Positions 25,217-41,752 of a stretch of 64,000 nucleotides of DNA are shown here, piece after piece. The first letter of the stretch is position 1, and every line of letters starts with the position of its first letter. This stretch comes from Rhodopirellula sp. SM50 (GTDB lineage: Bacteria; Planctomycetota; Planctomycetia; Pirellulales; Pirellulaceae). The DNA is taken from assembly GCF_002289565.1 (NCBI RefSeq), contig NZ_NTFY01000061.1:1-64000 (forward strand), read 5' to 3'. The position numbers and the translations under genes are program-made. Below the pieces are notes generated by a model. The model made no database searches and was not told where the DNA came from. It was given only the letters and a program-made list of their open reading frames with translations.

Positions 25217-25888
25217 TTATGACGACAGTGGCTTGAATGCTTCCGGCGCGATCGCATACAGCCGATCCATGTCCACCCATCCCATGATGCCTGCATCGTG
25301 ACCTCCTTCGCCCGTGATCACGCCGCCGCCTTGGGGGACGCGTTCGACGAACCCGCACCCATAGCTTTTCTTCCCGTGCTTTTGCCCGCCGTCGGCCGTG
25401 ATCCATCGATCGCCCATCTTCTTGTAGAAAAACCCGATGTGTCGGGTCATTCCCTTCTTGATATTGCCTTCGTCTTTGATCGCCTTGGGGCCGGCGGATG
25501 GGTCCAGAATCCAAATGACGCCGTTGGACTGCAGTTGAAACGGGCCGGAAGTCCCCCGGAACACGCGTTTCCAGAATGGGTCTTTGGTCTCAATGGACCA
25601 TTTCTTCGCTTGGTAATCCAAGTTGATTCGCCCAGCGTTTTTTTCAACGAAACAGAGAGTGAAAGCATCATCGTTCTCCGGGAAAGATTGGCTCGGTCGG
25701 CCAATCGGCGGCTGTTGACTGCACCATCGGACCGTTCGCGGAGTCGTTCCCCTGAGTTGGATTGTCGTCCCTGCAGCAGAAATATTACGGGAAAAGTGAC
25801 AGAAAACCAAACAATTTGGATGTCGAAAAGACGTTGTTGCCTGACGTTGCGTTGCCCTTTGTGTGCCGATGCTTGGGGCCGCTTCCAC
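25217..25888 (-). CDS. Hypothetical protein; C-terminal half resembles an amidase/NlpC-like domain
   Basis: 223-aa frame. Residues from about 85 look real: WILDPSAGPKAIK, then RHIGFFYKKMGDRWITADGG, and a C-terminal MGWVDMDRLYA, a pattern seen in peptidoglycan amidase-like (C40/CHAP-like) proteins where HxGF supplies the catalytic His. The N-terminal 80 residues have poor coding character and no clear start with RBS; the expected catalytic Cys segment is not visible, so it may be a 5'-truncated or decayed gene. It follows the APH-HopA1 gene after 30 nt on the same strand and could be the last gene of that unit. Confidence 0.45.
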   Translation of the reverse strand: MEAAPSIGTQRATQRQATTSFRHPNCLVFCHFSRNISAAGTTIQLRGTTPRTVRWCSQQPPIGRPSQSFPENDDAFTLCFVEKNAGRINLDYQAKKWSIETKDPFWKRVFRGTSGPFQLQSNGVIWILDPSAGPKAIKDEGNIKKGMTRHIGFFYKKMGDRWITADGGQKHGKKSYGCGFVERVPQGGGVITGEGGHDAGIMGWVDMDRLYAIAPEAFKPLSS

Positions 25889-25918
25889 GTCGGCGGACTC
25901 GGCCCACGTCAGGATGAC

Positions 25919-27994
25919 TTACTTGAGCGTCTCCTCCCGGTCCGCGACATCACTTCGGCCCGCCGATCCAGGCCGTAGGTGTGCCTGTTCCAGATCGATG
26001 CCTGCGCACCGAAAATGTTTTTCGATGTGGTCCAACACCTTGGGGCCGTGTAGATCATTCGACCCATCGGCGATGATCAACGCCTCGGCCAGCAGCCGGC
26101 TGACTCTTTGGCCAAAGCTTTGACCGTCGCCAGGGTCTTCCGCAATCCCGATTCCGGGACGGATCGCGTTGGTGAACAATGGAGTTCCCGACGAAAGACG
26201 AAACGCGGATCGGTCGACCAGATCTTTGACACGGCGAATCACCCAATCGACATCGCGTTTTTCAACATACAACACCAACGCATCGCGTCGCCCGAACAAC
26301 CTGGGGTGATTCATGCATTTGATTCGGAACGGAACACGGCAGCGATTGAGACAAAGCGTTAACGCCTGGATGACATCGAACACCGAGTGCTGATCACAAT
26401 GGAAATAAACGCGAACATGATTTCCACCCTCGCATTCTCTCGGCAACGTCTCGCTGAATGCAAAATAATAGTACGGCAGCCCCGTGCGATCTTCACGCTT
26501 GAGACCGATCACGTCCAACGGATGCATCTGCCATTCGTTTAAGCCCTGCCTGACCGGTAAGCCCTGCCAGGTCGGCCCCCATGCCGGTCCCGACGTTCCG
26601 CGGGTCTGATTGGCCCTCGACAATTGCTCGACGAACCACGGGTCGGGCATCAAATCGGCCGGGACGCTATAGGGTGCTTCGTCGGGGTCGCGACAATAGG
26701 CGGAAAAGTAAACCACCAGCGTCAGCGCATCGATCAGTTTCTCGCGCGGCGTCGCCGGGGAACCCTGCAAAGGCGAGGCAACAGCCGGATCGACCTGATG
26801 AACTTTCCCTGAGAACGCGAAGGTACAGTCGGAGACGATTTCGAGACGCTTCGCGATCGCAAGCAATCGATCTCGCAGGCAAGGCTGGGCCTCTTCGTCT
26901 TGACTCTTCGAGCGAGCCGTTGACCTGTGAAGCCCAGGTCTGGCAAAGGGCTGACATAGCATGTTGCGACTCTTTTCAATCAACCGCAACGAAAAGACCC
27001 CCGGGGTGTTTACCGAAAAGACCCCGGGGGTGTTTAACTGGAAATCGCGTTCCATGGCGGTCTGAATCAATCGTGACGCACAAAACCGGTGGACGCGTTC
27101 GGCAAAGACGGTGTCACACCGGACGCGGCAGTGCTGGGTATACGATTCGAAAAAAACGTCCGCGGCTTCACGTAGATCGGGTGCGCGATCGGATGCCGAC
27201 ACCAGTGATCGCTCAATGGAGCACGCGATGTATGACTGCAGCATGCCGGCAACATCCCAGGCGGGATCCCCCGATGCGGCGAGTTCCCAATCGACGAGGG
27301 TGACGCGTGAATCCGAATCGGGTTCCACCATCACGTTGGCCCACTTTAGATCACCATGGATGATCGTTGCGTCGCGCCACAGAGTTTGATTGCGCTGCAA
27401 TTCCTCAAACAACGAGGTGTCTTGTCGGATCGTCCGGACGATTGCAGCGTAGGCGGGGCCGGCTTGAGACGCATAGCCCACGGGAGCCTGTAGACGAATC
27501 GCAACCGGTAACGTCGCGCGAAGACGTCTCCGCTGGGCGTCGTTGGCCGGATCGCGTCCACCATTGTGGAGTTGTGCCAAGGCCTTGCCCACGGTCGATG
27601 ACCAAGCGATCAATCGTTGAGCCCGGCGGTTGATCGGTCCAGTCGTGGACAGGTCAAACAAGTTTTCCCCGTCGATGGACTCCATGACCAGAACATGGTG
27701 TGAGCGATCGACGTCGACCAACCGCGGGACGAATTCCCGTAGTGAAGACCAGCTCTGCCGGCGATGAAACGAATCCAGGACCGATGCTTCGACTTCCTGG
27801 TCGGCGATCAGGGTTGGGTCGAGCGAACGAATCTGCTTGACGAACAATCCCGATCCATTCTGGTTTCGAACGATGAAATTGCGGTTTCGCCCCACGGTTG
27901 GTGAGATGACATCCCTCGCTTCGAACCCATCGCGGTCTTCCAGATGCCCCCGGCGATGCAGGTACGCCGGAAGGTTGGAGGGCGAAAGCAACAA
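25919..27994 (-). CDS. APH-type kinase fused to HopA1-type lyase domain (RiPP dehydratase candidate)
   Basis: 691 aa, two domains. Residues about 30-310: aminoglycoside phosphotransferase-like kinase with K53 (GLFVKQI), Brenner motif H213-G-D215-LKWA-N220 and metal-binding D235-W-E237. Residues about 375-670: HopA1 family, recognisable by HVRVYFHCD, PFRIKCMNHP, DALVLYVEKRDV, GIGIAEDPGDGQSFGQ and LLAEAL. In thioviridamide (TvaC/TvaD) and class V lanthipeptide (LxmK/LxmY) pathways these are separate proteins that phosphorylate and eliminate Ser/Thr; a fusion would be a one-chain dehydratase. A 24-bp tandem duplication in the linker gives NTPGVFSVNTPGVFSL. TTG start 4 nt after the 76-aa peptide gene stop, with GGTGA overlapping that stop, so translation is coupled. 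Confidence 0.8.
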   Translation of the reverse strand: MLLSPSNLPAYLHRRGHLEDRDGFEARDVISPTVGRNRNFIVRNQNGSGLFVKQIRSLDPTLIADQEVEASVLDSFHRRQSWSSLREFVPRLVDVDRSHHVLVMESIDGENLFDLSTTGPINRRAQRLIAWSSTVGKALAQLHNGGRDPANDAQRRRLRATLPVAIRLQAPVGYASQAGPAYAAIVRTIRQDTSLFEELQRNQTLWRDATIIHGDLKWANVMVEPDSDSRVTLVDWELAASGDPAWDVAGMLQSYIACSIERSLVSASDRAPDLREAADVFFESYTQHCRVRCDTVFAERVHRFCASRLIQTAMERDFQLNTPGVFSVNTPGVFSLRLIEKSRNMLCQPFARPGLHRSTARSKSQDEEAQPCLRDRLLAIAKRLEIVSDCTFAFSGKVHQVDPAVASPLQGSPATPREKLIDALTLVVYFSAYCRDPDEAPYSVPADLMPDPWFVEQLSRANQTRGTSGPAWGPTWQGLPVRQGLNEWQMHPLDVIGLKREDRTGLPYYYFAFSETLPRECEGGNHVRVYFHCDQHSVFDVIQALTLCLNRCRVPFRIKCMNHPRLFGRRDALVLYVEKRDVDWVIRRVKDLVDRSAFRLSSGTPLFTNAIRPGIGIAEDPGDGQSFGQRVSRLLAEALIIADGSNDLHGPKVLDHIEKHFRCAGIDLEQAHLRPGSAGRSDVADREETLK
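26991..27038. repeat. In-frame 24-bp tandem duplication in the domain linker
   Basis: Copies at 26991-27014 and 27015-27038 (GAAAAGACCCCCGGGGTGTT type) differ by two bases and encode two NTPGVFS(V/L) octapeptides on the minus strand, exactly between the kinase and HopA1 domains. The unit is itself palindromic around CCCCCGGGG. Confidence 0.88.
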
Positions 27995-27998
27995 GGGA

Positions 27999-28229
27999 TC
28001 ACCAAACGGTCATCGGGTGCGGTCCCGGTTGCTGCTGCGTGTAGGGGTTTTGACCAGGATATTGGTAGCCCATGGGAGGCCCCTGCATTTGCCCCGGTCC
28101 GCCTCCGGTCCCTTGCTGTGGTGCCCCGGCAGCGATTGCCGCACATTGGGCGGCCATGGCAGCGTGATGAGCGGCCATCGCGGCGTGTTGCGCCGCATGC
28201 AACGCCGCCTGGGCTCGTTCGTCGGTCAT
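27999..28229 (-). CDS. Candidate RiPP precursor peptide (76 aa)
   Basis: Very biased small protein. Residues 1-34 are Ala/His/Gln-rich with a 7-residue period (HAAQHAA, MAAHHAA, MAAQCAA, IAAG), suggesting an amphipathic helix suited to be a leader. Residues 35-76 are Gly/Pro/Gln/Tyr-rich (GTGGGPGQMQGPP, YPGQNPYTQQQ) and end in MTVW. It has one Cys (C29), Thr at 41, 64 and 74, and no Ser. Its stop is 4 nt before the APH-HopA1 start and the S53 peptidase ends 78 nt upstream. Position, size and composition fit a substrate of the encoded enzymes; no known precursor family recognised. It could instead be an unrelated low-complexity protein. Confidence 0.6.
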   Translation of the reverse strand: MTDERAQAALHAAQHAAMAAHHAAMAAQCAAIAAGAPQQGTGGGPGQMQGPPMGYQYPGQNPYTQQQPGPHPMTVW

Positions 28230-28307
28230 AACTCACTCTCTCGATTTGGTGGAAGGGAATTGAAACCAATCAAAAACGGTTTCGATAAACCATGGGGCTG
28301 CCGTATT

Positions 28308-30440
28308 CTAGCTCGGCCATTGCCACTTTGGGGGGGACAGTGGAGAAATTGCAAATTGTGCGAAGTGGGCTGCTTGCTGGGCGAGACGGGCTGATTGCTG
28401 GGCTTGCTCGGCGATGTCCGTCGTCTCCGTGGAGGGACCCTTTGGATTGCGATCCGGACGCTTGGCCAACTCTTTTTTCACTCCCTCGAACAAGGCTCGG
28501 CCGACGGGAACACCGTGGCCGGTGCAGGCGTCCCAGCCGATGCCGGATTTAAAATAACCGTTGCTGCCTTCGGTGATATCACGGAAGGCATCGGTGCCGG
28601 CCAGACCATACAAGATCGGATGAATGAATCCGACGCGTCGTCCCAGCCCCTGATTGATTCTCGCAATCAACGCCGCCCAAAGTGGTGCCGCGGCGCTCGT
28701 GCCGCCGCTGTAATCCCACCTGCCGGCAAGCAGCGTGTGGTAACCGCTGGCCAGCGACGCATTGGCAGCAACATCGGGCAAGCCTCGCCCATCAAAGTCG
28801 TTGTGCTGGCTGGGCATCCCGGGAAGCTGGATCTTACTTTGATAGCCGGGGCGCTCGAACTCTTGACTGCGGCCTCCGGCGGTGGCCAGACGGCATTGGT
28901 CCAGATCGTTCCAGGCGTATTCCCTCACAATCTTGCCATCGGCGGTTTCGATTTCCGTCCCTCCACAAGCCAGGACGTACGGTGAGCTGGCGGGAAAATT
29001 GACGTGGGGGCTGGTCGGCCGTGTTCGGATCACGTCGAAATCACGCGATGCGGAACCGGCATCACCGGATGCCGCACAGATCGTGATCCCCATCAATGAA
29101 GCTCGTGCAAACAGCGCGTTGGCCAACTGCATCGGGCGAGACGCGAGGGTGGCTTCTGCCGATCCATAGCTGATCGAAACCACCGACGGACGGTTCCGCG
29201 AATGCAACGCGTGGGTCAACGCCGTCAGGTAGGGTTGTCTGGCATTGGGGTGCAATCGAAAAACGACCAGTTTTGCGCCCGGTGCGATACTACCGGCGAC
29301 CTGCAGATCAAGCGTCAATTCGAGATCATTGGCGTACTCGGCGATTTGCTGGGCGTTCCAAGTCTTGTCCGGTGGGCCGGGCGGAGAAGCGGCACGTGGG
29401 TACTGCGGCCCGATCGGCTCCACGACGATCTCCGGAGGCTGGATGCCTTGCAGCCGGAAGTACGTGTCCATGTCGGATGAATGGAATTGTCCGCCCAGCG
29501 AGATGATGCCGATCGTTTCGCCGGATCCATCGAACTGTTCTGGAAAGTCATACAGCCGCGCGATCTTTGACGGAAAGTAGATGTGATAGCCGGGTGGAAT
29601 CGGCTCGTCGTTGGAGCTGCGTGGCGGGGCATAGTCGGGTCCGAAGGGGTCGTCACCAGCTTTCTCCTCTGATCGGTATTTCGGACGCACTTCGGCGCAG
29701 ACCCGCGGGGTCTCACCGTCTTCCTCAGTCCCCGTCATTGTCGCGTCGGAATCCACGCTCACGCTTTGGCTGGCGACTGGTGAAATGCCGGACGGATCGA
29801 CCCAGGCCAACATCTCGGACCGAACGAGGTCCGGCGGCGCGTCATCGGGTTCGGGCCACGCCGCCGGCAGTGCGTCCGGCGGCAGGTCAGGCTCGTCGAG
29901 TTCGATTTCCTTGATGTTCTCTTCGATGCGAATTCGCCCGAGGTTTCCGATGCTGTCCAGCCCACCGACGGCCTCGATGATCCCGCCCAACGCGCGGGGG
30001 ACGCAAACTTCGCCGTGATGCCCAAAAAACTTTCCGCGGCGACAATCAAACCGCTTCAGCGTGACCTGAAAGGCTTCGCTACACTGCGCGACCGTGCCCT
30101 GGGCATGAACCACGCAGCGTCCGGCATAGGGTTCGATCAAATCAAAGCCGACGTCTTGGCAGAACTCCACGACGGCATCCATGTCCTCGTCGCTGGAACC
30201 AAATTGTTCTTCGAACTGCTCCAACGAAAGCACTTCGTCGGTGAGCGTCTGCGCCCGGTCCTCACTCAGCGAGGGTGCATCCGTTCGAGGACGAACATAA
30301 ATGGTGATCACCAGGGAGCGATTCGGATCGGCGTCACCCAATTCGCGGACGTCCTGTGGCATCGGCACGGCGCTTCCTTCCAGCGGCACCCAATCCGATT
30401 CGGCGTCAGTTGAATTCGGAGGCTCGTCGGAGGTGGTCAC
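28308..30440 (-). CDS. S53 family serine-carboxyl peptidase (sedolisin/kumamolisin type)
   Basis: 710 aa from a GTG at 30440 with GAGGA 8 nt upstream; the longer frame to 30563 is not supported. Pro-domain of the kumamolisin kind at about residues 40-190, catalytic domain from about 275. Catalytic triad E374 and D378 (ELTLD in DLELTLDLQ) and S582 in SGGTSAAAPLW, with ASGDAGS supplying the oxyanion Asp. No signal peptide, which is unusual for a family of mostly secreted acid proteases. The last 40 residues (AEQAQQSARLAQQAAHFAQ and on to KWQWPS) resemble the leader of the adjacent 76-aa peptide. In this cluster it is a candidate leader peptidase. Confidence 0.85.
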   Translation of the reverse strand: MTTSDEPPNSTDAESDWVPLEGSAVPMPQDVRELGDADPNRSLVITIYVRPRTDAPSLSEDRAQTLTDEVLSLEQFEEQFGSSDEDMDAVVEFCQDVGFDLIEPYAGRCVVHAQGTVAQCSEAFQVTLKRFDCRRGKFFGHHGEVCVPRALGGIIEAVGGLDSIGNLGRIRIEENIKEIELDEPDLPPDALPAAWPEPDDAPPDLVRSEMLAWVDPSGISPVASQSVSVDSDATMTGTEEDGETPRVCAEVRPKYRSEEKAGDDPFGPDYAPPRSSNDEPIPPGYHIYFPSKIARLYDFPEQFDGSGETIGIISLGGQFHSSDMDTYFRLQGIQPPEIVVEPIGPQYPRAASPPGPPDKTWNAQQIAEYANDLELTLDLQVAGSIAPGAKLVVFRLHPNARQPYLTALTHALHSRNRPSVVSISYGSAEATLASRPMQLANALFARASLMGITICAASGDAGSASRDFDVIRTRPTSPHVNFPASSPYVLACGGTEIETADGKIVREYAWNDLDQCRLATAGGRSQEFERPGYQSKIQLPGMPSQHNDFDGRGLPDVAANASLASGYHTLLAGRWDYSGGTSAAAPLWAALIARINQGLGRRVGFIHPILYGLAGTDAFRDITEGSNGYFKSGIGWDACTGHGVPVGRALFEGVKKELAKRPDRNPKGPSTETTDIAEQAQQSARLAQQAAHFAQFAISPLSPPKWQWPS

Positions 30441-30606
30441 AATGGGATTCCTCGTCCTGGAGGTGAGACGCTGATCAAGGCTGCGTGAAAACCAATTCCG
30501 GAGAACCGCCCGCCGTGCTGAACGATTTGACGCACTATAGTAGAGCAAGACTCTGAATTCCAACGTTTAACAGAGCACGCCAACGCTTCCAGAAAGGTTT
30601 TCCAGA

Positions 30607-32112
30607 GTGAACGAATCCATCGATGCGGCGGTCGCTGCCTGGCGTGAGGCACTGGGACAGGAGCACGTCGTGACGTCGGTCGAATCGCTCGAGCGGGCAT
30701 CGACGGCCACGTTTCCGACCAACGCGTCGGTTGTTGCGATTCTGCGTCCCGGCACTCATGACGACGTTCAAGCTGCGTTGCGGATCGCAAACCGATTTGA
30801 GCTGCCGGTCTACCCGACGAGTCGCGGTTGCAATTGGGGACTCGGCTCCTCCGTCCCCACACGCGACGCCGTGCTGTTGGATCTGTCCCGGATGAACCGG
30901 ATCGTTGACTTCGATCCGCGTTTGGGATTCTTGGTGGTTGAACCCGGCGTGACGTTCCAACAGGCAAGTCAATTCCTGCGTGATCAGCAATCAACGTTCT
31001 TCCTGCCGGTCCCCGGAGGCCCGCCCCAGGGAAGTCTGATCGGGAACATCGCCGAACGGGGAGAAGCCGCCGGACCCTATGGCCAGCGAGCCGACTTCGT
31101 TGCCAACTTGCAGGCGGTGCTTGCCAGCGGGGACTGCGTTCACACCGGTTTCGGACGCTTTCCCAAGGCGAGTGCAAAACACCTTCATCGCCACGGTGTC
31201 GGCCCAAACCTGGAGGGGTTGTTCACACAGTCCAACCTGGCAGTGATCACTCAACTGACGGTTTGGTTGACGCCCTCTCCCCAGGTTCTCAAACCGTTCA
31301 TGGCACGCATCGGCCGGCCGGATCAACTGAATCAGGCAATCGACACGTCTCGCGAATTGTTACTCCATCGAGTCGTCGAGACCAACGGAATCGGTTTGTG
31401 GAACAGCCATAAGATGGCGTCGACGATGGGCGGTTACCCGTGGCAGGCCATGGACGGAAAAACCCCCGTGGACATCGAGAGGTTCCCGAGCGAACCCTGG
31501 CTGATCGGCGGCGCGATTTATGCTGCCAGCCCCGAAATCGCCGATGCGACCGCCGCGCTTGTGCAGCAGAAGCTCAATGCGGTCACGACCGATTGGCAAT
31601 GGGGCGATTCGAATGATTCGCAGAACGTCTATCTGGGTGTGCCCACCGAACACAACATTCGCTCGGCGTACTGGCGAAAGAAAGGCGGATTGCCGACGCA
31701 CATCAATCCGGATCGTGACCGATGCGGTTTGATCTGGATGTGCTTTGCCATCCCACTGATAGGCCAAGAATTGGTCGACGTCATCAATGCCGTGCAACCC
31801 ATCGTTCTGCAACATGGCTTTGAACCTAATCTCGGAATAAACTGCGTCAACGGACGTTGCGCCCATTTGTACCTCTCCATCATCTACGATCGCGAGATTG
31901 CCGGCGAAGATGAACGTGCGGTCGCTTGCCATGACCAGGTCATGATACTGCTGCGTGACCTCGGGCATCTGCCGTATCGCTTGACGCTCTTGTCGATGGA
32001 TTCCCTGCCCCCGTCTGGAGATGATCACCAGCGCTGCTTGCAGTCGATCAAGCGGGCGTTGGACCCCAAATCGATCCTCGCCCCGGGACGCTACGACGTC
32101 GTCCAAGACTGA
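30607..32112 (+). CDS. FAD-linked oxidase of the VAO/PCMH family
   Basis: 501 aa. FAD_binding_4 domain with PVYPTSRGCNWGLGSS and DLSRMNRIVDFDP, then LVVEPGVTFQQASQFL, resembling the 4-cresol dehydrogenase/vanillyl-alcohol oxidase branch. The C-terminal substrate-binding cap follows (GINCVNGRCAHLYLSIIYD; SILAPGRYD). GTG start at 30607 with AAAGG upstream; a divergent 166-bp region separates it from the S53 gene. Stops 1 nt from the convergent methyltransferase. No signal peptide, so cytoplasmic. In this context it could oxidise a peptide side chain; a catabolic role cannot be excluded. Confidence 0.82.
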   Translation: MNESIDAAVAAWREALGQEHVVTSVESLERASTATFPTNASVVAILRPGTHDDVQAALRIANRFELPVYPTSRGCNWGLGSSVPTRDAVLLDLSRMNRIVDFDPRLGFLVVEPGVTFQQASQFLRDQQSTFFLPVPGGPPQGSLIGNIAERGEAAGPYGQRADFVANLQAVLASGDCVHTGFGRFPKASAKHLHRHGVGPNLEGLFTQSNLAVITQLTVWLTPSPQVLKPFMARIGRPDQLNQAIDTSRELLLHRVVETNGIGLWNSHKMASTMGGYPWQAMDGKTPVDIERFPSEPWLIGGAIYAASPEIADATAALVQQKLNAVTTDWQWGDSNDSQNVYLGVPTEHNIRSAYWRKKGGLPTHINPDRDRCGLIWMCFAIPLIGQELVDVINAVQPIVLQHGFEPNLGINCVNGRCAHLYLSIIYDREIAGEDERAVACHDQVMILLRDLGHLPYRLTLLSMDSLPPSGDDHQRCLQSIKRALDPKSILAPGRYDVVQD

Positions 32113-32113
32113 A

Positions 32114-33130
32114 TCAGGTCGACGTCGTATCGGTTTTGGCGGAAATCAGTAACGACCCCAAAATCTCGGGATCTTCGCCATCGCGAAATTGCACGTGACG
32201 AGGCGGTTGGAACCCGGCTTGGACCAACAGCCGAGTCGTTTGGTGCACCGAGTAGGCATCGCCTTCGTTCCACATATGGAATGCGACCAGCGAGCCCAAC
32301 GCCGGTTGCGTGCAGCCACCGTCGGTGAACAGGTCACGCACCACCAAACGTCCGCCCGCCCCCAGCGCGGCGTGACAGGCGGAGAAGATTGACTGGACGG
32401 ACGATTCGTCGAACAGATGGATCGTGTGGGACAGCAAGATCACGTCGTAGGGTCCGCCGTAGCATCCATCGGTGACCGAACCCGGACGCAACTTGATTCG
32501 ATCGGCCAGTTGAGCATCGCTGACGTTCCGATGGGCGAAATGCAATGCATCATCCAGATCCAAAATCGTCGCGTTCAAGTGCGGGTAGCGTTTGCAGGCC
32601 GCGATCGCATAGCACCCCGGGCCGCCGCCCAAATCGAGCAGTGTCTGATCTCGATCAAGTTGCATGACTTCGGCGATTCGGTCGGCCGACAGATGTGCCA
32701 TCCGATGCATGGCCGCCATGTAGTTTCGCCATTGGTCCGCAGTGGTCGCCGGTCGCACAGGCCCACCAAACCGCAAATGATTCAATAACAACGAAATCGG
32801 TTTGCTTTCGAATTGGTCGGTGAAAAAATCGACGAATTCTCCGAAGTACTGGGCATTTCTTCCGAGTAAGCTTTGGCGTGCGATCTCGGTCAACTCATAA
32901 TCGTCGCCCAGACGCCGGACCAAATCCATCGTTTCCAACGTGACGAGCAGCTTGCGCAGACCGGTTGCTTGGACGCCGAGCGTGTTCGACAAGCCCGTCA
33001 CATCACAGGTTCTGTCAGCCAAGGCGGCAAACAATCCCGATCGGTGAGCGATCGCCAGGCTGCGTGCACGCATCTGACCGGCAAGCAGGTCTTCGATGTA
33101 GCGACTCGGCGAAAGGGACTCGTCAGACAT
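32114..33130 (-). CDS. SAM-dependent O-methyltransferase (acetylserotonin/hydroxyneurosporene type)
   Basis: 338 aa. N-terminal winged-helix dimerisation domain (residues 15-90, SGLFAALADRTCDVTGLSNT), then the Rossmann SAM domain with motif I LLDLGGGPGCYAIAAC, the acidic ATILDLDDAL and PYDVILLSHTIHLFD, and post-motif GGRLVVRDLFTDGG. This family methylates hydroxyl groups of small molecules in secondary metabolism. Its stop is 1 nt from the FAD oxidase stop, and it diverges from the radical SAM gene with 123 bp between. Likely tailoring enzyme of the cluster; substrate unknown. Confidence 0.85.
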   Translation of the reverse strand: MSDESLSPSRYIEDLLAGQMRARSLAIAHRSGLFAALADRTCDVTGLSNTLGVQATGLRKLLVTLETMDLVRRLGDDYELTEIARQSLLGRNAQYFGEFVDFFTDQFESKPISLLLNHLRFGGPVRPATTADQWRNYMAAMHRMAHLSADRIAEVMQLDRDQTLLDLGGGPGCYAIAACKRYPHLNATILDLDDALHFAHRNVSDAQLADRIKLRPGSVTDGCYGGPYDVILLSHTIHLFDESSVQSIFSACHAALGAGGRLVVRDLFTDGGCTQPALGSLVAFHMWNEGDAYSVHQTTRLLVQAGFQPPRHVQFRDGEDPEILGSLLISAKTDTTST

Positions 33131-33253
33131 AATCCATCCTGGGCAAGAAAAGCGATCGGATGTTTGGCGAACGGTAAAGTAGAATCATAGGTCGCCGATC
33201 GACGTTCCCGTGGCCATTCACAAAACTTCTGCCCCGCTTTCGAGATTCAGAGC

Positions 33254-35173
33254 ATGTTGAATCCTCGCGTCGCTCTGGTGTCGATGCCGTGGCACAGCAC
33301 CAACATGCCGTCGATTCAATTGGGAATCAACCAGGCCTTGTTGTCTGCCCACGACATCGAAACGACGAGTTACTCGTTTTACCTGGAATGGTCCCGGTTC
33401 CTCGCCCAACGCGTCTATCATCGCGAAGAAATGCTGGCCGGAATCGAGTCGGTCAGCGACACCTTTCACGGTGTCGGATTGGGAGAGTGGATCTTCGGCG
33501 TGCCGCCACTGTTTCCCAGCGACCCACCATTCGACGCAGAGTATTACCGTTTTCTTGTCCAGAAACGGATCCCGGCGAGTGTCATCGACAGCGCCTTTGC
33601 GGTGCGGAATTGGGTGCCGGAGTTCCTCAATCAATGCGTCTCAGAGATCCTGGCCCAGTCGCCGGGCGTGGTAGGCTTCACCACGATGTTCAGCCAAAAC
33701 ATCGCCTCGCTCGTTTTGGCCCTAAAACTCAAGATGCAGGACAGCGATTTGAAAGTTGTCTTCGGTGGGGCCAATTGCCAGGGTGAGATGGGAGTGGAAC
33801 TGTTTCGACGCTTTCCGTTCATCGATGCCGTCGTCCGGGGCGAATCAGAAGGCGTTTTCCCTGAATTGATCAAACAATGGCAATCCGGCAACAGCACGTC
33901 AGAGCTGCCGGGAATCTGTCTGCGGGAATCGGATATCCAGCGAATCAACCCGACCGCTGCGAACGCGTCCTTCACCATGGCCGACGTGCCTCAACCGGAC
34001 TATGACGAGTATTTCCAGCGACTGAGCCGACACCCACTGCAACCGATCATCGACCCGCAGATTCAGTTACCGGTCGAATCGTCACGCGGATGTTGGTGGG
34101 GCGAAAAATCTCACTGTACATTCTGCGGGCTCAACGGCGCCACGATGTCCTTTCGATCCAAACCGGCGGAACAATTCCATGACCAACTGATGGATCTTTC
34201 GCAACGCTATCGTCGACTCCGGTTCTTCTCCGTCGACAATATCTTGGACATGAACTACCACCGTGAACTGCTGCCACGGTTGGCGGAGGCACCGATCGAT
34301 TTCCAATTATTCTTCGAAGTCAAAGCGAACCTGCGTAAGTCACAACTGCGGTTGATGCGTGACGCAGGCATTCGAACCATTCAGCCGGGAATCGAAAGTT
34401 TCAGCACGCCGATTTTAAAACTGATCCGCAAGGGAACGACGGCCCTGCAGAACATCCGGCTGCTGAAGTACTGTGCCGAACTGGGTATCGATGTGGTCTG
34501 GAATGTGATCTACGGATTCCCGAACGAACCGATCGCGGAATACGAATCGATGGCCGCCGCCGCACCCTCGCTTGTGCATTTGCAGCCACCGCGAATGGTG
34601 CGGTTGGTGATCGACCGCTACAGCCCTTACCACACGGATCCGAGTTCGCAAGGTTTACAAATCACCGGCCCGGCAGAATTCTATGCGTACATCTATCGCG
34701 AACCGGCATCCGAACTGAGCGATCTGGCGTATCATTTCGAAGCGGTGCATTCCGATGGTCGCGATCCGGAACAGTACACGCATGCGTTGAAAGCGGCGAT
34801 CGAAAACTGGAGCCACCGATACGCGACGAATCCCGGTCGACTAACCCTGCAACTCGGCCCCGGATTCGTTCGGATCCACGACCATCGATTCGAACGCCCC
34901 TCGGAAATCATCTTGGAGGGAATCGAGGCGGCTGTGTATCAGGCGATCCGGCACGGCGGCAACGCCGAGTCCGTGCGTCGACACCTGCACGAACGCCACG
35001 ATGTTCGCGTTTCCGCAACACAGGTGCGCGACGTGTTGGAACGATTCAAGGCCCAGTCACTCGCCTTTGTCGACGACGATCGATTCCTCGCGTTGGCCGT
35101 CAACGTTCATGACACGGGCGCCGACGAATCCGATGCCGGGTCGGCCGAGCAACCGTTGGTGTTTAGCCTTTAG
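33254..35173 (+). CDS. Cobalamin-binding radical SAM protein, RiPP-maturation family (TIGR03975-like)
   Basis: 639 aa. N-terminal B12-binding-like domain (about residues 60-210: VVGFTTMFSQNIASL, KVVFGGANCQG, FIDAVVRGESE), then a radical SAM core with C280-x7-C288-x2-C291 in ESSRGCWWGEKSHCTFCG. The WWGEKSHCTFCGLNG signature is that of the family annotated as RiPP maturation radical SAM protein 1, found beside diverse ribosomal peptide precursors. Members are predicted C-methyltransferases or other peptide modifiers. The C-terminal 150 residues (EGIEAAVYQAIRHGG) form a helical domain. The strongest family evidence that this region makes a modified peptide. Confidence 0.9.
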   Translation: MLNPRVALVSMPWHSTNMPSIQLGINQALLSAHDIETTSYSFYLEWSRFLAQRVYHREEMLAGIESVSDTFHGVGLGEWIFGVPPLFPSDPPFDAEYYRFLVQKRIPASVIDSAFAVRNWVPEFLNQCVSEILAQSPGVVGFTTMFSQNIASLVLALKLKMQDSDLKVVFGGANCQGEMGVELFRRFPFIDAVVRGESEGVFPELIKQWQSGNSTSELPGICLRESDIQRINPTAANASFTMADVPQPDYDEYFQRLSRHPLQPIIDPQIQLPVESSRGCWWGEKSHCTFCGLNGATMSFRSKPAEQFHDQLMDLSQRYRRLRFFSVDNILDMNYHRELLPRLAEAPIDFQLFFEVKANLRKSQLRLMRDAGIRTIQPGIESFSTPILKLIRKGTTALQNIRLLKYCAELGIDVVWNVIYGFPNEPIAEYESMAAAAPSLVHLQPPRMVRLVIDRYSPYHTDPSSQGLQITGPAEFYAYIYREPASELSDLAYHFEAVHSDGRDPEQYTHALKAAIENWSHRYATNPGRLTLQLGPGFVRIHDHRFERPSEIILEGIEAAVYQAIRHGGNAESVRRHLHERHDVRVSATQVRDVLERFKAQSLAFVDDDRFLALAVNVHDTGADESDAGSAEQPLVFSL

Positions 35174-35300
35174 GCGATTCCCGGTCGCGGCATCGCAGCG
35201 ACAATGGGCGGCTAAAGCCCAATACCGCTAAGTAAACATCAATGTGGGGCCCGGACGCTGGCGCGAACCGGCTGATATCAAACGAATACCAGCCGAGTAG

Positions 35301-35317: not shown

Positions 35318-35366
35318 AACCGCCTCTCGTTCTCGTTCGAGCCGGCACTGATTTACCGCTCGTCGC

Positions 35367-38015
35367 TCAGTACGTGAACTCCGTCGCAAGATAGAAGTTT
35401 GCTCCGGGTTGGTTCACGCGGCCGATCGAGGTTGCAGTGTTCGATGGTAATCCTGGCAAGAACGTCAATTCTCGTCCGGCCGGATCGAGATGGGTCCGGT
35501 ACTGATTGTCCCCGAAGTTTTCCACTCCCGCGTGCAGCGTGACCGCATCCGTCGGCCGCCAATAGCCACGCAGGTCAAAAATGCTGTAGCCGGGGGTTCG
35601 CACTTCACCGAGCGAGTTGGCGACGAGATCTTGACCGGCGACAAACAGTGCGGAGACTTCAAGGCCCCACGGAGAATGCTGGTCGCACCCGTTGTTCAGG
35701 CGAAGTCCGACTCGGGCCTGCAAAGGCAGCATGTTCGGCAACGCTTCACTTTCGGTGCCGGCCAACAAACTGCGCAATTCTGATCCCGGAGGATCAAAGG
35801 CACTGGCGGCCGCATTTGACGTCCGTGTCCGATCCCGCCCCTGGGTGTAGGACGCCGTGACAAACCCGTTCGTTCGCTTGGTCAAATCCATTTCTCCTTC
35901 GTAGTCAAAGCCGACCAGCGTTGCCAGATCCGTGTTGACGGTTTGAAAGGCATAGAAATCCGGCGACAACGCATCGAAGGTGATGTAGTTTTCAATCCAA
36001 GCGGCAAACCCACTGACCCGAGCGCGATACCAGCCTTTGTCGGTCGCCAGCGACGCGTTGATCTGGTACCGGCGTTCCGGCTCGAGATTCGGATTGCCGA
36101 ACAAGATGGAGAACGTTTGCTGGGGGAAAATGGTGGAGATGTGCTGGAACGAATACAGTTCTGTCATCGTCGGCGCTCGCATGCCATAACCGAACCCGAT
36201 GCCGGTGGTCCACTCGGAATTGAGCTGGTAGTCGGCGTCCACGTAAGCGGATCCCAGCCCGAACGAACGGTCAAAGTCTCCCAATAACAAGTCGTCCAAT
36301 TCCGCCTGCACGCCCGGAAACGTCAGGACGTTGCCGGTGCCGGGGTCGATCACGTTGACGGGATCACCGTTGGGGTTGTAAACGAACGGAAACTCTCCGT
36401 TGGGCCCGTTGAGAACCAATGGACCTGACAATCCCCCGACTTGATCGACGACGGTTTTGGCGTTCGTTTCGACAACGTCAACACGCCCTCCGACGCTGAC
36501 GGTCAATCGATCCGTCACGCGGCGAATGCGTTCCATGAACAATCCCGGGTTGGCCCAATACGCTTCGGGCACGGGGCCGTTCACCTCCGCTGATGCGTCG
36601 TTACCATTGATAAACGGTGGAGAAAGAAGCGGCAGTTCCGAAAACTGATTCACTTCCTGAGTCAAATAGCGAAGGTCACTTCCCACAGTCGTCACGCTGT
36701 CCTCGGAAATCCAATCACCCGAGAGCGAGTATCCGGTGGACATATTGCGGGCGTTGGATCGGATCGGACCGATGTTCGTCCCGAGGAACGGGATCGCTTC
36801 ACGCTTGGCCTCGGAATTAGCGTTCCCATTCAAGCTGGTTTCGTTGTACCAAGTATTGAACGTCAGAACGTCGAAGATTCCGGAATCCTCCACCACGTAA
36901 TTGGCGTCGATCCCGTGAGTCCGCAGGTGGCCGATATCCAACAGTTGCGTCGGCACCTCAACGTCGTTGAGTTCCAACCAGATGTAGCTGATTTCCAGGT
37001 GCCGATACGGTGTCAGGTCGCAACCAAACGCGATGTCGACGTCTTGTGATTGATAGCTGGATAGATATTCATCGCCGTTTCCGTCGTGGTAATCGCTTCC
37101 CGAACGCTTGCCGTAGCCGATGCGGAAACCGTAATCTTGGTTGCCACCCCAAACGGACTGACGTCCATACCATTGTTCGCCGTTACTTTTGTATTCGGCC
37201 GTCGAACTGCCGTGAGACTCGAATCCGTTTTCATAGCGCGGCGACTGCATCACTTGAAAGTCGATGAAATCAAAACCGGGGCCGTAGCGAGCCGCGAACG
37301 GTCCCTTGATGATGATCACGTCCTCCAGAATGCGTGAATCAATTTTGTTCAAAACCGTGTCCAAATCCTGTCGGGCGGGAAACCAATAGGATCCCGATGC
37401 GATCAGCTGACCGACCGTGCTGCCGTGCACCTTGGTGTCGGTGATGATCGGAGAACGACTCTTGGCTTGGACGCCCGGTGCCGTGATGGACTTTCCAAGC
37501 AGGTTGCCCGCGTCCGTGGAGACTCGGAACTTGGCTTCAGATCCGAACACGACATCCGAACGCGACCGCGAGTAGCGGCGTCGACGCGAGGAAAGCAAAC
37601 TGGTGTCGCGCGAGGCAAGAATCGTGTCGGCGAATTCCCTCGCCTGGGGCGTCAACCCGATCGGACTTTCAAAGGTCTGGGGCGCGGGGACCAACGGAGT
37701 CGTCTGGTCGACTTGAAACAGAACCTGGTCAACCAGAGTGTCCGCTGGCTCGGCTGGTTCAATCGTGCGGTCGGAGAAAGCAGTGGTCGTCCCAGACGCA
37801 TTCGCATCCGCGTCACCGATCTCGCCCACGATCACGTCGACGAGCTCCCCTCGTTGCTCTCCGGGCGTGGTCGCTGAAAGCGGCGGTCCTGCCACCGCAG
37901 CGGTGCCGGCCGTCACCGTGGCAATGGCGAGGACGATCGCCCCGGCATCGGTGAAGGACAGGCGGAACAAACCTGAAGCAATCCATTTGCGGCAGGAAAT
38001 ACGTTGTCTCGGCAT
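35367..38015 (-). CDS. TonB-dependent outer-membrane receptor
   Basis: 882 aa. An N-terminal export region (hydrophobic residues 22-42), a plug domain at about residues 190-290 (ITDTKVHGSTVGQLIASG, then VLNKIDSRILEDVIIIKGPFAARYGPG), and a long beta-barrel with alternating aromatic strands ending in YLATEFTY, the usual C-terminal aromatic residue for barrel assembly. Imports a large nutrient such as a siderophore, cobalamin or glycan using TonB energy; ligand unknown. It is convergent with the RiPP radical SAM gene; a link to product uptake or export is speculative. No TonB box clearly seen. Confidence 0.9.
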   Translation of the reverse strand: MPRQRISCRKWIASGLFRLSFTDAGAIVLAIATVTAGTAAVAGPPLSATTPGEQRGELVDVIVGEIGDADANASGTTTAFSDRTIEPAEPADTLVDQVLFQVDQTTPLVPAPQTFESPIGLTPQAREFADTILASRDTSLLSSRRRRYSRSRSDVVFGSEAKFRVSTDAGNLLGKSITAPGVQAKSRSPIITDTKVHGSTVGQLIASGSYWFPARQDLDTVLNKIDSRILEDVIIIKGPFAARYGPGFDFIDFQVMQSPRYENGFESHGSSTAEYKSNGEQWYGRQSVWGGNQDYGFRIGYGKRSGSDYHDGNGDEYLSSYQSQDVDIAFGCDLTPYRHLEISYIWLELNDVEVPTQLLDIGHLRTHGIDANYVVEDSGIFDVLTFNTWYNETSLNGNANSEAKREAIPFLGTNIGPIRSNARNMSTGYSLSGDWISEDSVTTVGSDLRYLTQEVNQFSELPLLSPPFINGNDASAEVNGPVPEAYWANPGLFMERIRRVTDRLTVSVGGRVDVVETNAKTVVDQVGGLSGPLVLNGPNGEFPFVYNPNGDPVNVIDPGTGNVLTFPGVQAELDDLLLGDFDRSFGLGSAYVDADYQLNSEWTTGIGFGYGMRAPTMTELYSFQHISTIFPQQTFSILFGNPNLEPERRYQINASLATDKGWYRARVSGFAAWIENYITFDALSPDFYAFQTVNTDLATLVGFDYEGEMDLTKRTNGFVTASYTQGRDRTRTSNAAASAFDPPGSELRSLLAGTESEALPNMLPLQARVGLRLNNGCDQHSPWGLEVSALFVAGQDLVANSLGEVRTPGYSIFDLRGYWRPTDAVTLHAGVENFGDNQYRTHLDPAGRELTFLPGLPSNTATSIGRVNQPGANFYLATEFTY

Positions 38016-38335: not shown

Positions 38336-41300
38336 TCAGCGCGGCGGCGCGGCTTGGTCGTCGGGACCGGTGATCGCTTGTTCGGCGCGTCGACGCAGCG
38401 TCAACAACTCGATGCGCCCCGGGCACTGTGACTCCATCAATTCGATGGCCTTGCCAAGCGTTACCGATGCCCGTTCGGTGTTGGCGGTCTGTTGCAGCGC
38501 GATGGCGAGCACAAACAAGTCGAAGGGAGACGGCTGGACTCGCAACTGGACCGCCGCTTCGGCTTCGTCCAACGCCTGGTTGGCGTCGCCATCGGCCAGG
38601 TACGCGACAGCCAACGAATAACGGAAATCGGGATTCAGTTCGTCTTGATCACGAAGCTCACGGGCCAATTGGATGGCGCGTTGGGGGTCGCGAATCTGCT
38701 CGGCCGAGCACTCCGTCAGCACGCGGATCAACGCCCGTCGGTACTTGGGCGAATCGGGCAACTGCTCGCGGAGACGAAGCGTTTGTCGATAATGTGGCAA
38801 CGCCGCGATCAGTTTGTCTTCGGCGGCGAGCAGTTCGGCAAGATAAAAATGACACCATGCGAGGGCATCGCGGTAGCGAACCTGCGTTTTGCCGGCGTCA
38901 ACGACATCCGTCAACTCGTCGATGACCTCGCTCAACAGCGCGCGTGCTTCTGCCGTTTTGCCTTGCAAGCTCTTCGTCTTGGCCAGTCCCATGCGACTGA
39001 TCGCAACGTCACCCCGATATCGAATCAGTTCGGGGAAGTCTTCGCTCAACCAAGTGAATTCTTCGATCCCGCCGGTGAACGCCGTTTCCGCCATGCCGTG
39101 CTCATTGAGATCTCTCAAAACCATCGCCAACATCACCAAACACTGCGCCTTGGCTTCGCGATAGACAGCGACTTGGGGGTAGGTCTGCGACAGCGAAATC
39201 AGTTCTGACACCGCTTGGTCCAAATGCACTTTCGCATCGCGACTGCGAGAGGAAAGGTGAAGCATCTGGGCGATATTCACCCGCCCGGTGGCCACACTTT
39301 GCCGGTACTTGGGCATCCCCGGACGCTGATTGAGCAGGACAAGATAATCCTCCACCGACGACTGATAGGCGTCCAGCGGCCCGTCATCATCGCCCGACAG
39401 CCGCAATGAATTCCCCAGCAGCACGCGGGTGAGCGCCAAGCCTTCTCGATAGGAGATTTGATCGGGGGCTTGGGCGATCAGTCGCTTGAACTCGGATTCC
39501 GCGTCGCGCAGTCGCTCGACGGCTTGCTGATCGTCACCGGTGACTTGCAACAGTTGTCCGATTTCGCGGCCGCACATCGCCAGCCCTTCGCGAGCACGAA
39601 GGTTGTCCGGTGCTTCGTCACGGACCCGAGCAAAGCCTGCTTCCGCGGCGGCGAACATCTCGGCGGCTTCACCGATTCGATCGACCTGCACCAACAGTTC
39701 GGCGTAATTGTACTGGGCACCGGCAAGATCGATCTGGGCGTCGCGTTGCAAATCCGGATCGGAATGCGGTAGATCGAAAGCGCTGACGGCTTGTTGGAAG
39801 TACTGTTCCGCTTTCCCGGCGTCGCCGATCGACATCGACAACAGTGCTCGGCGAACCCAGACATTTGCCAGGTCGATGTTCCAACTCGTGTCATCGGGAT
39901 GTTGTTGTTTCAGTAGTTCCAAGTTTTTCTCGGCAATCTGATAATGCCCGTCGGCTGCATCATGTTCGTGCATCGTCCGGCGCAGGTCAGCCAATCGGAT
40001 CCGCGTGCGTGCCGCTTCGCGACGCAGTTGCGGATCGTCTGCATCGATTTGCAACAGCTCTTCGTAATCCTCCGCCGCGGATTGCAATAGGCCTGCCCGC
40101 ACCGCGCTGGTCGCCGGAAAGACGGCCAGCACCTCGCTCACGCCGGACAGCGAGCGGTCGATCGCATCTTGGGCACGGCGGAATTGTTGCAGCGCGAGTT
40201 TTTTTGCGGCTTGCTCTGCCTCCAAGGACTCGGTCGCCAGCACACGTGCTTGTTGTTCCTTCCACAACGACTCGGCGACATGATTCTTGGCGTTCGTTGT
40301 CACCGCAGCGATCGTGAAACCGGCCACGGACGCGACCAGCAAGACGCCTGCCATCGCAAGGCTCAAGGTTCGATGATGGCGGAACCACCGCGACGCTCTT
40401 TCGAGTGCCGTGTCTTGATAAGCCGAAACCGGTTCATCGGCCAGCCAACATTGGATGTCGCCGGCAAGTGCTTCGGCTGATTGGTAGCGTTCACTTCGCG
40501 ATCGAGCCATCGCTTTGGCGCAGATCGCATCGAGCGCCCGGGGCGCGGTCGGAACGACCGAACGGACCGTCGGCGTGGGGAACACACGAATGCGACGCAA
40601 CAAGTCGTGGGCGGTGTCTTTGGTGTCGGCCGGGCGAGTTGTTTCGTGCGGCGATTTTCCGGTCAGCATCGCGAACAGGATCGCCCCCAATCCATAAATG
40701 TCCGTCAACTCGTCGTTCAAACTCACCCGACCGGAAGCTTGCTCGGGCGACATGTAGGCGGGGGTTCCCAGCGCTTGGCCTTCTCGTGTGAAGCTGACGG
40801 AGTGTTCGTCGTCAAACACGACCGCGTCCATGTCCACGTCTTCTCGGGGTGCCTCATCAAGCTTCTTGGCCAACCCCCAATCGACCACAATCACTTCGCC
40901 AAAGTCGCCCAACATGATGTTGCTGGGTTTAAGGTCGCGGTGGATGATGCGACGGGAGTGGGCGTAGCCGATCCCATGACAAATCGACACAAAGATGCCC
41001 AGCAGAGTCCGCAACTCCAGCGCATCGATTTCCGCGGGCGGCCGACGGCGGTTGGCGCTCCGCAGGTGGTCGCCGAGTGTTTTGCCACGCAAGAAACGCA
41101 TGGTGTAAAACGGCTGGTCTTCCTGATTGGGCGAAAGTTCGTAGACCGGAACTATGTTCGGGTGCTCGAGCTGGCCGGTGATCTGAGCTTCGCGGATCAG
41201 CTTCTTGTATCGATTCTTTGTCTGACGCTTGCCGGGCAAGACCTCTTTGAGTGCGACTTCTCGATTGAGGATTGAATCGCGTGCCAGCCAGACACACCCC

Positions 41301-41752
41301 AGGCCACCGCGCCCGTGTTCTCGCGTCAACCTGTATCGGTTGCGGGTGCGGGGCAGCGACTCGAGCGTCTCGAACAAGTCAGAATCCTCGCCTCCCTCGC
41401 CGATGGCTCCCTCAGAGGGTCGAGTCGCATCGTCAGATTCCTCCATCGTGCCCGGCGAAGGAGTATCGATGGTTTCCTCGTTGCTTCCCCGTTGCGTCTT
41501 GGAAGGGACCGCCGTGTCTTTGCCAACCGAAGTGGAATCGGCGAGCAGGAGCCGATCGATTTCACGCTCGATGTCTGCTTGCTGCTGCGCCGTCAGAATC
41601 GACTGCTCACGCAACATCTCAATCAACCGCTGGCCGGAACTCTCATCCAGCTGTCGGGCCAGTTCTTCCAGACGCTCCGTGTCGATCACCCCCATTCGCA
41701 CGGCGAGGACAACGAACAAGAACTCACGTTTCACGTTCACGGGAAGCACCAA
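38336..41752 (-). CDS. Ser/Thr protein kinase with transmembrane helix and TPR sensor/scaffold region
   Basis: 1138 aa. Kinase domain about residues 138-440: glycine loop HGRGGLGCVWLA, VALKEVLPG lysine, catalytic HRDLKPSN and VVDWGLAK (DWG in place of DFG, as in several planctomycete kinases), APE region TPAYMSPEQASG. A transmembrane helix at about 460-484 is followed by an extracytoplasmic stretch of TPR-like helices to the C-terminus. Phosphorylates unknown proteins; the TPRs probably bind partners. Start uncertain: TTG 41752 or GTG codons at 41749, 41740 and 41734. No sigma gene adjoins it, unlike the second kinase. Confidence 0.9.
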   Translation of the reverse strand: MVLPVNVKREFLFVVLAVRMGVIDTERLEELARQLDESSGQRLIEMLREQSILTAQQQADIEREIDRLLLADSTSVGKDTAVPSKTQRGSNEETIDTPSPGTMEESDDATRPSEGAIGEGGEDSDLFETLESLPRTRNRYRLTREHGRGGLGCVWLARDSILNREVALKEVLPGKRQTKNRYKKLIREAQITGQLEHPNIVPVYELSPNQEDQPFYTMRFLRGKTLGDHLRSANRRRPPAEIDALELRTLLGIFVSICHGIGYAHSRRIIHRDLKPSNIMLGDFGEVIVVDWGLAKKLDEAPREDVDMDAVVFDDEHSVSFTREGQALGTPAYMSPEQASGRVSLNDELTDIYGLGAILFAMLTGKSPHETTRPADTKDTAHDLLRRIRVFPTPTVRSVVPTAPRALDAICAKAMARSRSERYQSAEALAGDIQCWLADEPVSAYQDTALERASRWFRHHRTLSLAMAGVLLVASVAGFTIAAVTTNAKNHVAESLWKEQQARVLATESLEAEQAAKKLALQQFRRAQDAIDRSLSGVSEVLAVFPATSAVRAGLLQSAAEDYEELLQIDADDPQLRREAARTRIRLADLRRTMHEHDAADGHYQIAEKNLELLKQQHPDDTSWNIDLANVWVRRALLSMSIGDAGKAEQYFQQAVSAFDLPHSDPDLQRDAQIDLAGAQYNYAELLVQVDRIGEAAEMFAAAEAGFARVRDEAPDNLRAREGLAMCGREIGQLLQVTGDDQQAVERLRDAESEFKRLIAQAPDQISYREGLALTRVLLGNSLRLSGDDDGPLDAYQSSVEDYLVLLNQRPGMPKYRQSVATGRVNIAQMLHLSSRSRDAKVHLDQAVSELISLSQTYPQVAVYREAKAQCLVMLAMVLRDLNEHGMAETAFTGGIEEFTWLSEDFPELIRYRGDVAISRMGLAKTKSLQGKTAEARALLSEVIDELTDVVDAGKTQVRYRDALAWCHFYLAELLAAEDKLIAALPHYRQTLRLREQLPDSPKYRRALIRVLTECSAEQIRDPQRAIQLARELRDQDELNPDFRYSLAVAYLADGDANQALDEAEAAVQLRVQPSPFDLFVLAIALQQTANTERASVTLGKAIELMESQCPGRIELLTLRRRAEQAITGPDDQAAPPR

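What the first reader, a model, noticed from the sequence alone, without database searches (positions are those of the whole stretch)
25919..35173. Probable new type of RiPP biosynthetic cluster in a planctomycete
Six adjacent genes fit together: an APH-HopA1 fusion (Ser/Thr dehydration chemistry known as separate proteins in thioamitide and class V lanthipeptide pathways), a biased 76-aa peptide touching it, an S53 peptidase, a VAO-type FAD oxidoreductase, a small-molecule-type O-methyltransferase and a B12-radical SAM protein with the RiPP-maturation signature. No YcaO, TfuA, LanC or class V cyclase is visible, so the combination matches no described class I know. Gene families are seen; the pathway is inferred.
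Basis: partly seen in the sequence, partly recalled or inferred. Interest (0 to 1): 0.88.

Follow-up and report, generated by a model that had tools for sequence, protein, structure and literature searches.

The report
Stieleria RiPP locus with fused dehydratase
In a few species of the aquatic bacterium Stieleria, a short, almost unchanging peptide sits beside a set of enzymes that look built to dehydrate, methylate, oxidise and cut it, probably yielding an unusual modified peptide whose enzyme combination we did not find elsewhere.

Summary
All six genes are real and family models name each enzyme. The 76-aa peptide is the most constrained of the six (dN/dS 0.02-0.06 against 0.12-0.34 for the enzymes). 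The block, plus a TonB receptor and a TPR-Ser/Thr kinase outside the finding's coordinates, is conserved in 4 of 14 Stieleria genomes.

The RiPP reading is well supported; "new type" only partly. In all 5 other planctomycete HopA1 loci found, the APH/HopA1 pair is two genes beside a LanC cyclase and a Thr/Cys-rich, repetitive candidate precursor. In Stieleria the pair is one protein, no genus genome searched has LanC, and this peptide has no Ser, one Cys and two or three conserved Thr. It looks like a lanthipeptide-type ancestor that kept the dehydratase, lost the cyclase and gained a B12-radical SAM methyltransferase, a 4-alkylphenol-oxidase-type flavoenzyme and a methyltransferase. None of 22 other TIGR03975 regions read shares this set.

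antiSMASH already labelled what is very probably the S. sedimenti copy "class V lanthipeptide" (2022, no analysis); that label fails the cyclase test. Homologous TonB receptors, mostly with the kinase, lie beside some other planctomycete RiPP-like loci. The chemistry is inferred; nothing is biochemically shown.

The parts
25919..27994 (-). Single-chain APH kinase - HopA1 lyase (Thr/Ser dehydratase)
   Evidence: Pfam/NCBIfam; PDB 9dk1 'Lyase' 1e-7 and 'Kinase' 4e-3; motifs HGDLKWxN, DWE, R528, K559, R569, Y576
27999..28229 (-). Candidate precursor peptide, 76 aa; Ala-rich helix-like half, then Gly/Gln/Pro/Tyr-rich half ending MTVW
   Evidence: dN/dS 0.02-0.06; 34 synonymous vs 4 non-synonymous codon differences in two pairs
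28308..30440 (-). S53 (kumamolisin-type) peptidase with C-terminal Ala/Gln-rich tail; start revised from 30563
   Evidence: start revised
30607..32112 (+). VAO/PCMH-type FAD oxidoreductase (4-alkylphenol-oxidising subfamily)
   Evidence: PF01565; 4-cresol dehydrogenase 4e-50 over 6-497
32114..33130 (-). Methyltransf_2 family SAM methyltransferase
   Evidence: PF00891; PDB relatives include DSYB, DtpM, MfnG
33254..35173 (+). B12-binding radical SAM, TIGR03975, motif CX7CX2C
   Evidence: 602 bits against cut-off 282; motif read from sequence
35367..38015 (-). TonB-dependent receptor (only the barrel is recognised by Pfam)
   Evidence: PF00593 4e-28; ortholog only in the 4 block-bearing Stieleria of 14
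38336..41752 (-). Ser/Thr protein kinase with TPR repeats
   Evidence: PF00069 2e-35 and TPR; ortholog only in the same 4 genomes of 14

Best explanation
A RiPP biosynthetic locus. The 76-aa peptide is the precursor: the Ala-rich amphipathic half (about 1-36) acts as leader and the Gly/Gln/Pro/Tyr-rich half is modified. The fused kinase-lyase phosphorylates conserved Thr (T41, T74; perhaps T2) and eliminates phosphate to give dehydrobutyrine. With no cyclase, most Dhb stays open or is used by another enzyme. The B12-radical SAM enzyme C-methylates a residue. The VAO/PCMH-type flavoenzyme oxidises a para-phenol side chain, most likely one of the invariant Tyr55/57/63, at the benzylic carbon. 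The methyltransferase caps a hydroxyl or the N-terminus. The S53 peptidase removes the leader, and the TonB receptor with its kinase handles uptake or sensing of the product. Shown: families, catalytic motifs, conservation, co-inheritance. Inferred: substrate, every reaction and its order, and the role of the receptor.
For: Families and intact motifs. Spacing K559-R569 (10) and K559-Y576 (17) equals Lys219-Arg229-Tyr236 of the tested lyase CaoY (PMC9486802 passages). Six genes collinear in 4 species, TonB and kinase orthologs in the same 4. Peptide the most constrained of the six genes. Five of 5 other planctomycete HopA1 loci have APH, HopA1 and LanC adjacent, each with a Thr/Cys-rich candidate precursor nearby. 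TonB receptor homologs lie beside APH/HopA1/LanC in 2 and beside PatA/PatG proteases in 3 of 10 non-orthologous regions read; a TPR-kinase homolog is adjacent in 4 of these 5.
Against: The peptide has no Ser, one Cys and 2-3 conserved Thr, poor substrate content for a dehydratase. It matches no known precursor family. No RRE-type domain came up in the Pfam/NCBIfam scans of the block genes (no dedicated RRE search), and there is no exporter gene in the block. The block is known from one genus only; four related species are one event. The PCMH tyrosine in the GxNxGYG motif is Leu here, so the phenol substrate is uncertain. The lyase Tyr is Phe in one species. AlphaFold on the fusion failed. Five of 10 TonB regions read show no RiPP gene beside the receptor (L088, L094, L097 are at contig edges or on short contigs; L095 and L096 are not).
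Confidence: 0.65

Rival explanations
1. An ordinary class V lanthipeptide cluster, as antiSMASH labels it: the fusion dehydrates, and Cys29 closes a methyllanthionine ring spontaneously or with an unrecognised cyclase.
For: APH + HopA1 signature; published antiSMASH 6 call for S. sedimenti, whose genome G212 holds one HopA1 match; one conserved Cys and conserved Thr.
Against: No LanC in 14 genus genomes; no second APH gene (LanX type) among the block genes scanned; Cys29 lies in the Ala-rich leader-like half, 12 residues before the nearest conserved Thr; no Ser; none of the repetitive Thr/Cys architecture seen in LanC-bearing relatives.
Confidence: 0.13
2. The enzymes form a pathway but the 76-aa peptide is not their substrate; it is an accessory protein (for example a His/Met/Cys metal-binding helix), and the real substrate is another peptide such as the S53 C-terminal tail.
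For: Very strong conservation over the whole length, unlike a diversifying core; H11, H15, M18, H21, H22, M25, C29 lie on one helical face (p 0.001 over all positions 5-34); the S53 tail is also Ala/Gln-rich with Ser residues.
Against: Direct 4-nt coupling to the dehydratase gene; the His/Met/Cys stripe is not significant among non-Ala residues (p 0.10); tail similarity is only nominal (65 of 2000 shuffles reach it); no other conserved small ORF was convincing.
Confidence: 0.12
3. The flavoenzyme and methyltransferase serve stieleriacine (N-acyl dehydrotyrosine) biosynthesis and only the rest is RiPP-related.
For: S. neptunia makes O-methylated stieleriacines, and PMC12479983 (passages) proposes an MfnG-like O-methyltransferase, Enr13x_12160; the block's enzyme at 1.626 Mb is the only PF00891 match in G210 below 3.5 Mb, so it may be that gene.
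Against: The tag-position match is a guess; the paper proposes a nitroreductase-family protein elsewhere for the desaturation and finds the main nasY gene elsewhere; both genes are embedded in the block in all 4 species.
Confidence: 0.08

Closest known systems
Class V lanthipeptide dehydratase CaoK/CaoY, LxmK/LxmY, SprPT/SprH3
   Same: APH-type kinase plus HopA1-type lyase; catalytic residues kept; the spr cluster also has a PF00891 methyltransferase (PMC7794033, passages)
   Different: One polypeptide here; no AviCys decarboxylase, F420 or luciferase-like reductase, or cyclase among the block genes; 14 genus genomes lack LanC
Thioamitide TsaC/TsaD (TvaC/TvaD)
   Same: Same dehydratase pair acting on few residues, one of them a Thr (PMC8153245, passages)
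   Different: No YcaO, TfuA or cysteine decarboxylase among the block genes
HopA1-LanC RiPP-like families (PMC8153245, passages)
   Same: APH/HopA1 pair; planctomycete relatives in L016-L018, L091, L092 are of this kind
   Different: Stieleria lacks LanC and has the kinase-lyase fusion instead; the fusions named in the passages seen are HopA1-LanC
TIGR03975 RiPP maturation radical SAM C-methyltransferases
   Same: Full-length match well over cut-off
   Different: None of the 22 other planctomycete regions read carries S53, VAO, this methyltransferase or HopA1 homologs
ApyD / ApyS of aminopyruvatide-type RiPPs (ApyD and ApyS as named by NCBIfam; 'aminopyruvatide' recalled)
   Same: Weak matches of the radical SAM (3e-23) and the methyltransferase (3e-7)
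   Different: Both far below cut-off; the rest of that pathway was not compared
Vanillyl-alcohol oxidase / p-cresol methylhydroxylase flavoenzymes
   Same: Full-length homology; Tyr-Arg pair near the C-terminus kept
   Different: Next to a RiPP-like peptide; the GxNxGYG Tyr is Leu

Membership tests
Class V lanthipeptide | LanK-type APH and LanY-type HopA1 proteins | tested here: met
   as a fusion, and far below the LxmK equivalog cut-off (78 of 315 bits)
Class V lanthipeptide | cyclisation to lanthionine: cyclase gene and Ser/Thr...Cys core | tested here: not met
   no LanC in 14 genus genomes, no second APH among the block genes scanned, one Cys, in the leader-like half; an unrecognised cyclase cannot be excluded
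Class V lanthipeptide | (methyl)lanthionine in the product | not testable with these tools
   needs mass spectrometry
Thioamitide | YcaO/TfuA pair and thioamides | tested here: not met
   no such match among the block genes scanned; the rest of the genome was not searched for YcaO
TIGR03975 RiPP radical SAM C-methyltransferase | match over curated cut-off, radical SAM cysteines | tested here: met
   601.8 bits vs 281.85; CWWGEKSHCTFC
TIGR03975 RiPP radical SAM C-methyltransferase | C-methylation of a ribosomal peptide | not testable with these tools
   enzymology needed
4-alkylphenol oxidase (VAO/PCMH) | full-length homology with phenolate-binding residues | tested here: inconclusive
   homology 4e-50; Tyr-Arg pair kept, one Tyr replaced by Leu; residue roles recalled
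S53 peptidase | prodomain plus Glu/Asp/Ser catalytic set (roles recalled) | tested here: met
   aligned ELTLD, SGDAGS, GGTSAAAP to kumamolisin

The most novel reading that the evidence does not exclude
A new RiPP class: a near-invariant peptide whose product works as a dedicated metabolite (metallophore, cofactor or signal) rather than an antibiotic, built by a single-chain kinase-lyase without cyclisation, by B12-radical SAM methylation, and by flavin (VAO-type) oxidation of peptidyl tyrosine, and recognised by its own TonB receptor; this receptor type, usually with its TPR-kinase, would be a recurrent partner of planctomycete RiPPs.
Probability: 0.25. Interest if true: 0.85.

Novelty: new variant of a known kind. 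Interest (0 to 1): 0.6.

Why it matters
It would add a lanthipeptide-style dehydratase used without a cyclase, a possible flavin route to oxidised tyrosines in ribosomal peptides, and a tractable case: G210 has the genome size that I read as S. neptunia Enr13's, a strain in which gene deletions have been published. The five LanC-bearing relatives give a natural before/after comparison of how a lanthipeptide pathway turns into something else. The TonB receptor beside different RiPP-like machineries would be a handle for genome mining in a phylum from which, by the papers seen, very few products are known.

Tried and rejected
S53 tail as a second copy of the leader: BLAST and shuffles gave 65 of 2000, too weak. 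G040 peptide-like hit: lies in another frame inside a 730-aa gene, rejected. The other peptide hits outside the 4 genomes (E 0.004-1) were taken as composition noise and not followed up. Other conserved small ORFs in the gaps: overlaps or upstream regions, not convincing. Tandem repeats in window 19000-60000 (11 rows): none that looks like a repetitive precursor. AlphaFold of the fusion (2-row alignment): pLDDT 31, unusable. LanC in trans: none in the genus. Fusion on plasmids: 15 records; 6 match in two pieces, of which 5 lie in two annotated genes (4 of them a phosphotransferase and a LanC-family protein, so probably HopA1-LanC fusions) and 1 record has no annotation; 9 are partial. The genome-contig scan found only S. 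sedimenti. Paper searches: no held paper has the phrases 'vanillyl alcohol oxidase', 'RiPP' and 'precursor peptide' together, and I saw no APH-HopA1 fusion in the listings or the passages read; most subscription papers are not held. A review of planctomycete metabolites (PMC12078418) held none of five RiPP terms. An earlier count said that G066 (L090) has the TonB-kinase pair; that is wrong, its neighbour is not a kinase.
Full report
Observation. The window lies in a 9.8-Mb genome; the one named relative found by the genome-contig scan is Stieleria sedimenti. Pfam and NCBIfam name all five enzymes of the finding at the stated coordinates; the peptide matches no family of note (best: NifM, E 0.034). 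The fusion holds an APH kinase domain (residues 37-254) and a HopA1 lyase domain (509-673). PDB relatives are chains of entry 9dk1 called 'Lyase' (1e-7) and 'Kinase' (0.004). The kinase keeps K53, HGDLKWxN and DWE. The lyase keeps R528, K559, R569 and Y576, with the spacing of Lys219, Arg229 and Tyr236 in the tested enzyme CaoY (PMC9486802, passages; our positions); in L015 the Tyr is Phe. The S53 start at 30563 is doubtful because L013 has a stop at codon 26; the next shared start is near 30440.

Conservation. In 241 genomes of the family, a match to the fusion (E 1e-10) is found in 7: four Stieleria with the fusion (G000, G207, G210, G212) and three genomes with two separate genes. The six genes are collinear in the four Stieleria. 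G210's length, 10,975,817, stands in a table of PMC12254169 (passage) whose column heads I did not see; that the column is S. neptunia Enr13 is my reading. Of 14 genus genomes, the 4 with the block are the only ones with the fusion, the radical SAM, the peptide, and orthologs of the TonB receptor (93-97%) and the TPR-kinase (91-96%). The other 10 have only distant receptor and kinase matches (at most 47% identity), and three of them no receptor match at the threshold. The S53, FAD and methyltransferase genes were not searched for singly in those 10, apart from PF00891 in G208. So the unit runs at least from 25919 to 41752.

The peptide. It is 93-97% identical between species. dN/dS is 0.018-0.059, against 0.117-0.338 for the five enzymes (the L013 S53 row there covers only 25 codons, redone with 699 codons: 0.052/0.331). 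In the two pairs counted codon by codon 22+12 codons differ synonymously and 2+2 non-synonymously. T41, T74, C29, Y55, Y57, Y63 and W76 are invariant, T2 is T or S, T64 is M in the other three, and there is no Ser apart from S2 in two species (window numbering as, L013 has one residue inserted after 39). Non-Ala/Gly residues of the first half fall on one helical face (p 0.0001); His/Met/Cys do too (p 0.001), but not beyond the other non-Ala residues (p 0.10). A peptide this constrained argues for one fixed product rather than a diversifying antibiotic; that is inference.

Relatives. HopA1 in the planctomycete genomes searched: 7 of 241 in the family and 3 of 392 drawn from the phylum, G000 included. 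All 5 non-Stieleria loci (L016, L017, L018, L091, L092) hold APH, HopA1 and LanC as neighbours; four of the LanC were checked for WCHG and CHG motifs and have them. Each has a Thr/Cys-rich ORF nearby. L016, L017 and L018 have repeats of TTGGRC or FTR[RK]GEGQCGG upstream of the kinase gene (tandem repeats run on L016 and L018). L092 has a 400-aa ORF with long repeats, and L091 a 332-aa ORF rich in CPT repeats. That these are precursors is inference. None of 14 Stieleria genomes has LanC (E 0.001). PMC8153245 (passages) reports 1,340 HopA1 proteins, 96% beside a phosphotransferase and 20% near or fused to LanC; PMC7794033 section 9 mentions distant pair homologs in Planctomycetes. The pair with LanC is therefore known in kind; the kinase-lyase fusion without LanC was not seen in what I read.

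The radical SAM partner. TIGR03975 occurs in 6 of 241 family genomes and 17 of 392 phylum genomes, 24 matches. I fetched 20 regions around the phylum matches, which cover 22 of the 23 matches outside G000 (not G300:C189:2968-4764), plus L051 and L052 from the family. Flanks are about 6-9 kb in most, less at contig ends. None carries homologs of the S53, FAD, methyltransferase, peptide, fusion or TonB genes (tblastn E 1e-3); kinase matches in four of them and sulfatase matches in two or three are of common kinds. So the association is real within one lineage, but four related species are one evolutionary event, not four.

The flavoenzyme falls with 4-cresol dehydrogenase, eugenol oxidase and vanillyl-alcohol oxidase. 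Its C-terminal Tyr-Arg pair aligns with that of 4-cresol dehydrogenase; the Tyr of GxNxGYG is Leu. That these residues bind the phenolate is recalled. The conserved Tyr-rich stretch GYQYPGQNPY of the peptide is the obvious candidate substrate; this is inference.

TonB receptor and kinase. Outside the genus 40 family genomes have a TonB match; the three HopA1 genomes rank 2nd, 4th and 5th by E-value (by hand: 10 of 9880 triples lie within the top five). I read ten non-orthologous TonB regions (L016, L018, L088-L090, L094-L098). Two lie beside APH/HopA1/LanC, and three beside PatA/PatG-type proteases (L089, L090, L098; L089's is below the cut-off and split over two ORFs). A TPR-kinase homolog is adjacent in L016, L018, L089 and L098 but not in L090. 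L094 has receptor and kinase at a contig edge in a HopA1 genome. Four show no RiPP gene (L088 and L097 on short contigs; L095, the window genome's own paralog; L096). So the link is frequent, not universal. The fetched regions were mostly the best-scoring ones, so this is no random sample.

Known label. PMC9692418 section 14 lists one class V lanthipeptide by antiSMASH 6 in S. sedimenti; with one HopA1 match in that genome this is very probably the present locus, though the text gives no coordinates or analysis.

Verdict. A real, co-inherited RiPP-type locus with a class V-type dehydratase in one chain, no recognised cyclase and a tailoring set not met elsewhere in the searches. RiPP nature about 0.85; Thr dehydration about 0.65; Tyr oxidation about 0.35; these are judgements.

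Noticed in passing
L089 (G054), L098 (G197), L090 (G066): TonB receptor homologs lie beside PatA/PatG cyanobactin-type proteases in family genomes, with the TPR-kinase in L089 and L098 but not L090; small Cys-containing ORFs lie near them in L089 and L090.
   Followed up: partly
L016 7437-7697, L017 249-536, L018 10450-10731, L091 7583-8581, L092 12481-13683: Candidate lanthipeptide precursors with repeated Thr/Cys stretches beside split APH/HopA1/LanC genes in planctomycetes.
   Followed up: partly
window 32114-33130; G210:C1:1625743-1626282: The methyltransferase may be Enr13x_12160, proposed in PMC12479983 as stieleriacine O-methyltransferase; position fits roughly, not verified.
   Followed up: partly
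window 25072-25918: About 850 bp between the sulfatase and the fusion; in the three relatives the aligned ends are only about 20-220 bp apart, so most of this stretch is specific to this genome.
   Followed up: no
window 42216-54506: 4096-aa giant protein with PKD, dockerin and RTX-type repeats next to the block; no DNA match to it at this place in G207.
   Followed up: no
window 35367-38015: Pfam recognises only the barrel of the TonB receptor, no plug domain.
   Followed up: no
window 26990-27036: A 24-bp tandem duplication in the linker of the fusion gene (NTPGVFSV twice), absent in the three relatives.
   Followed up: no
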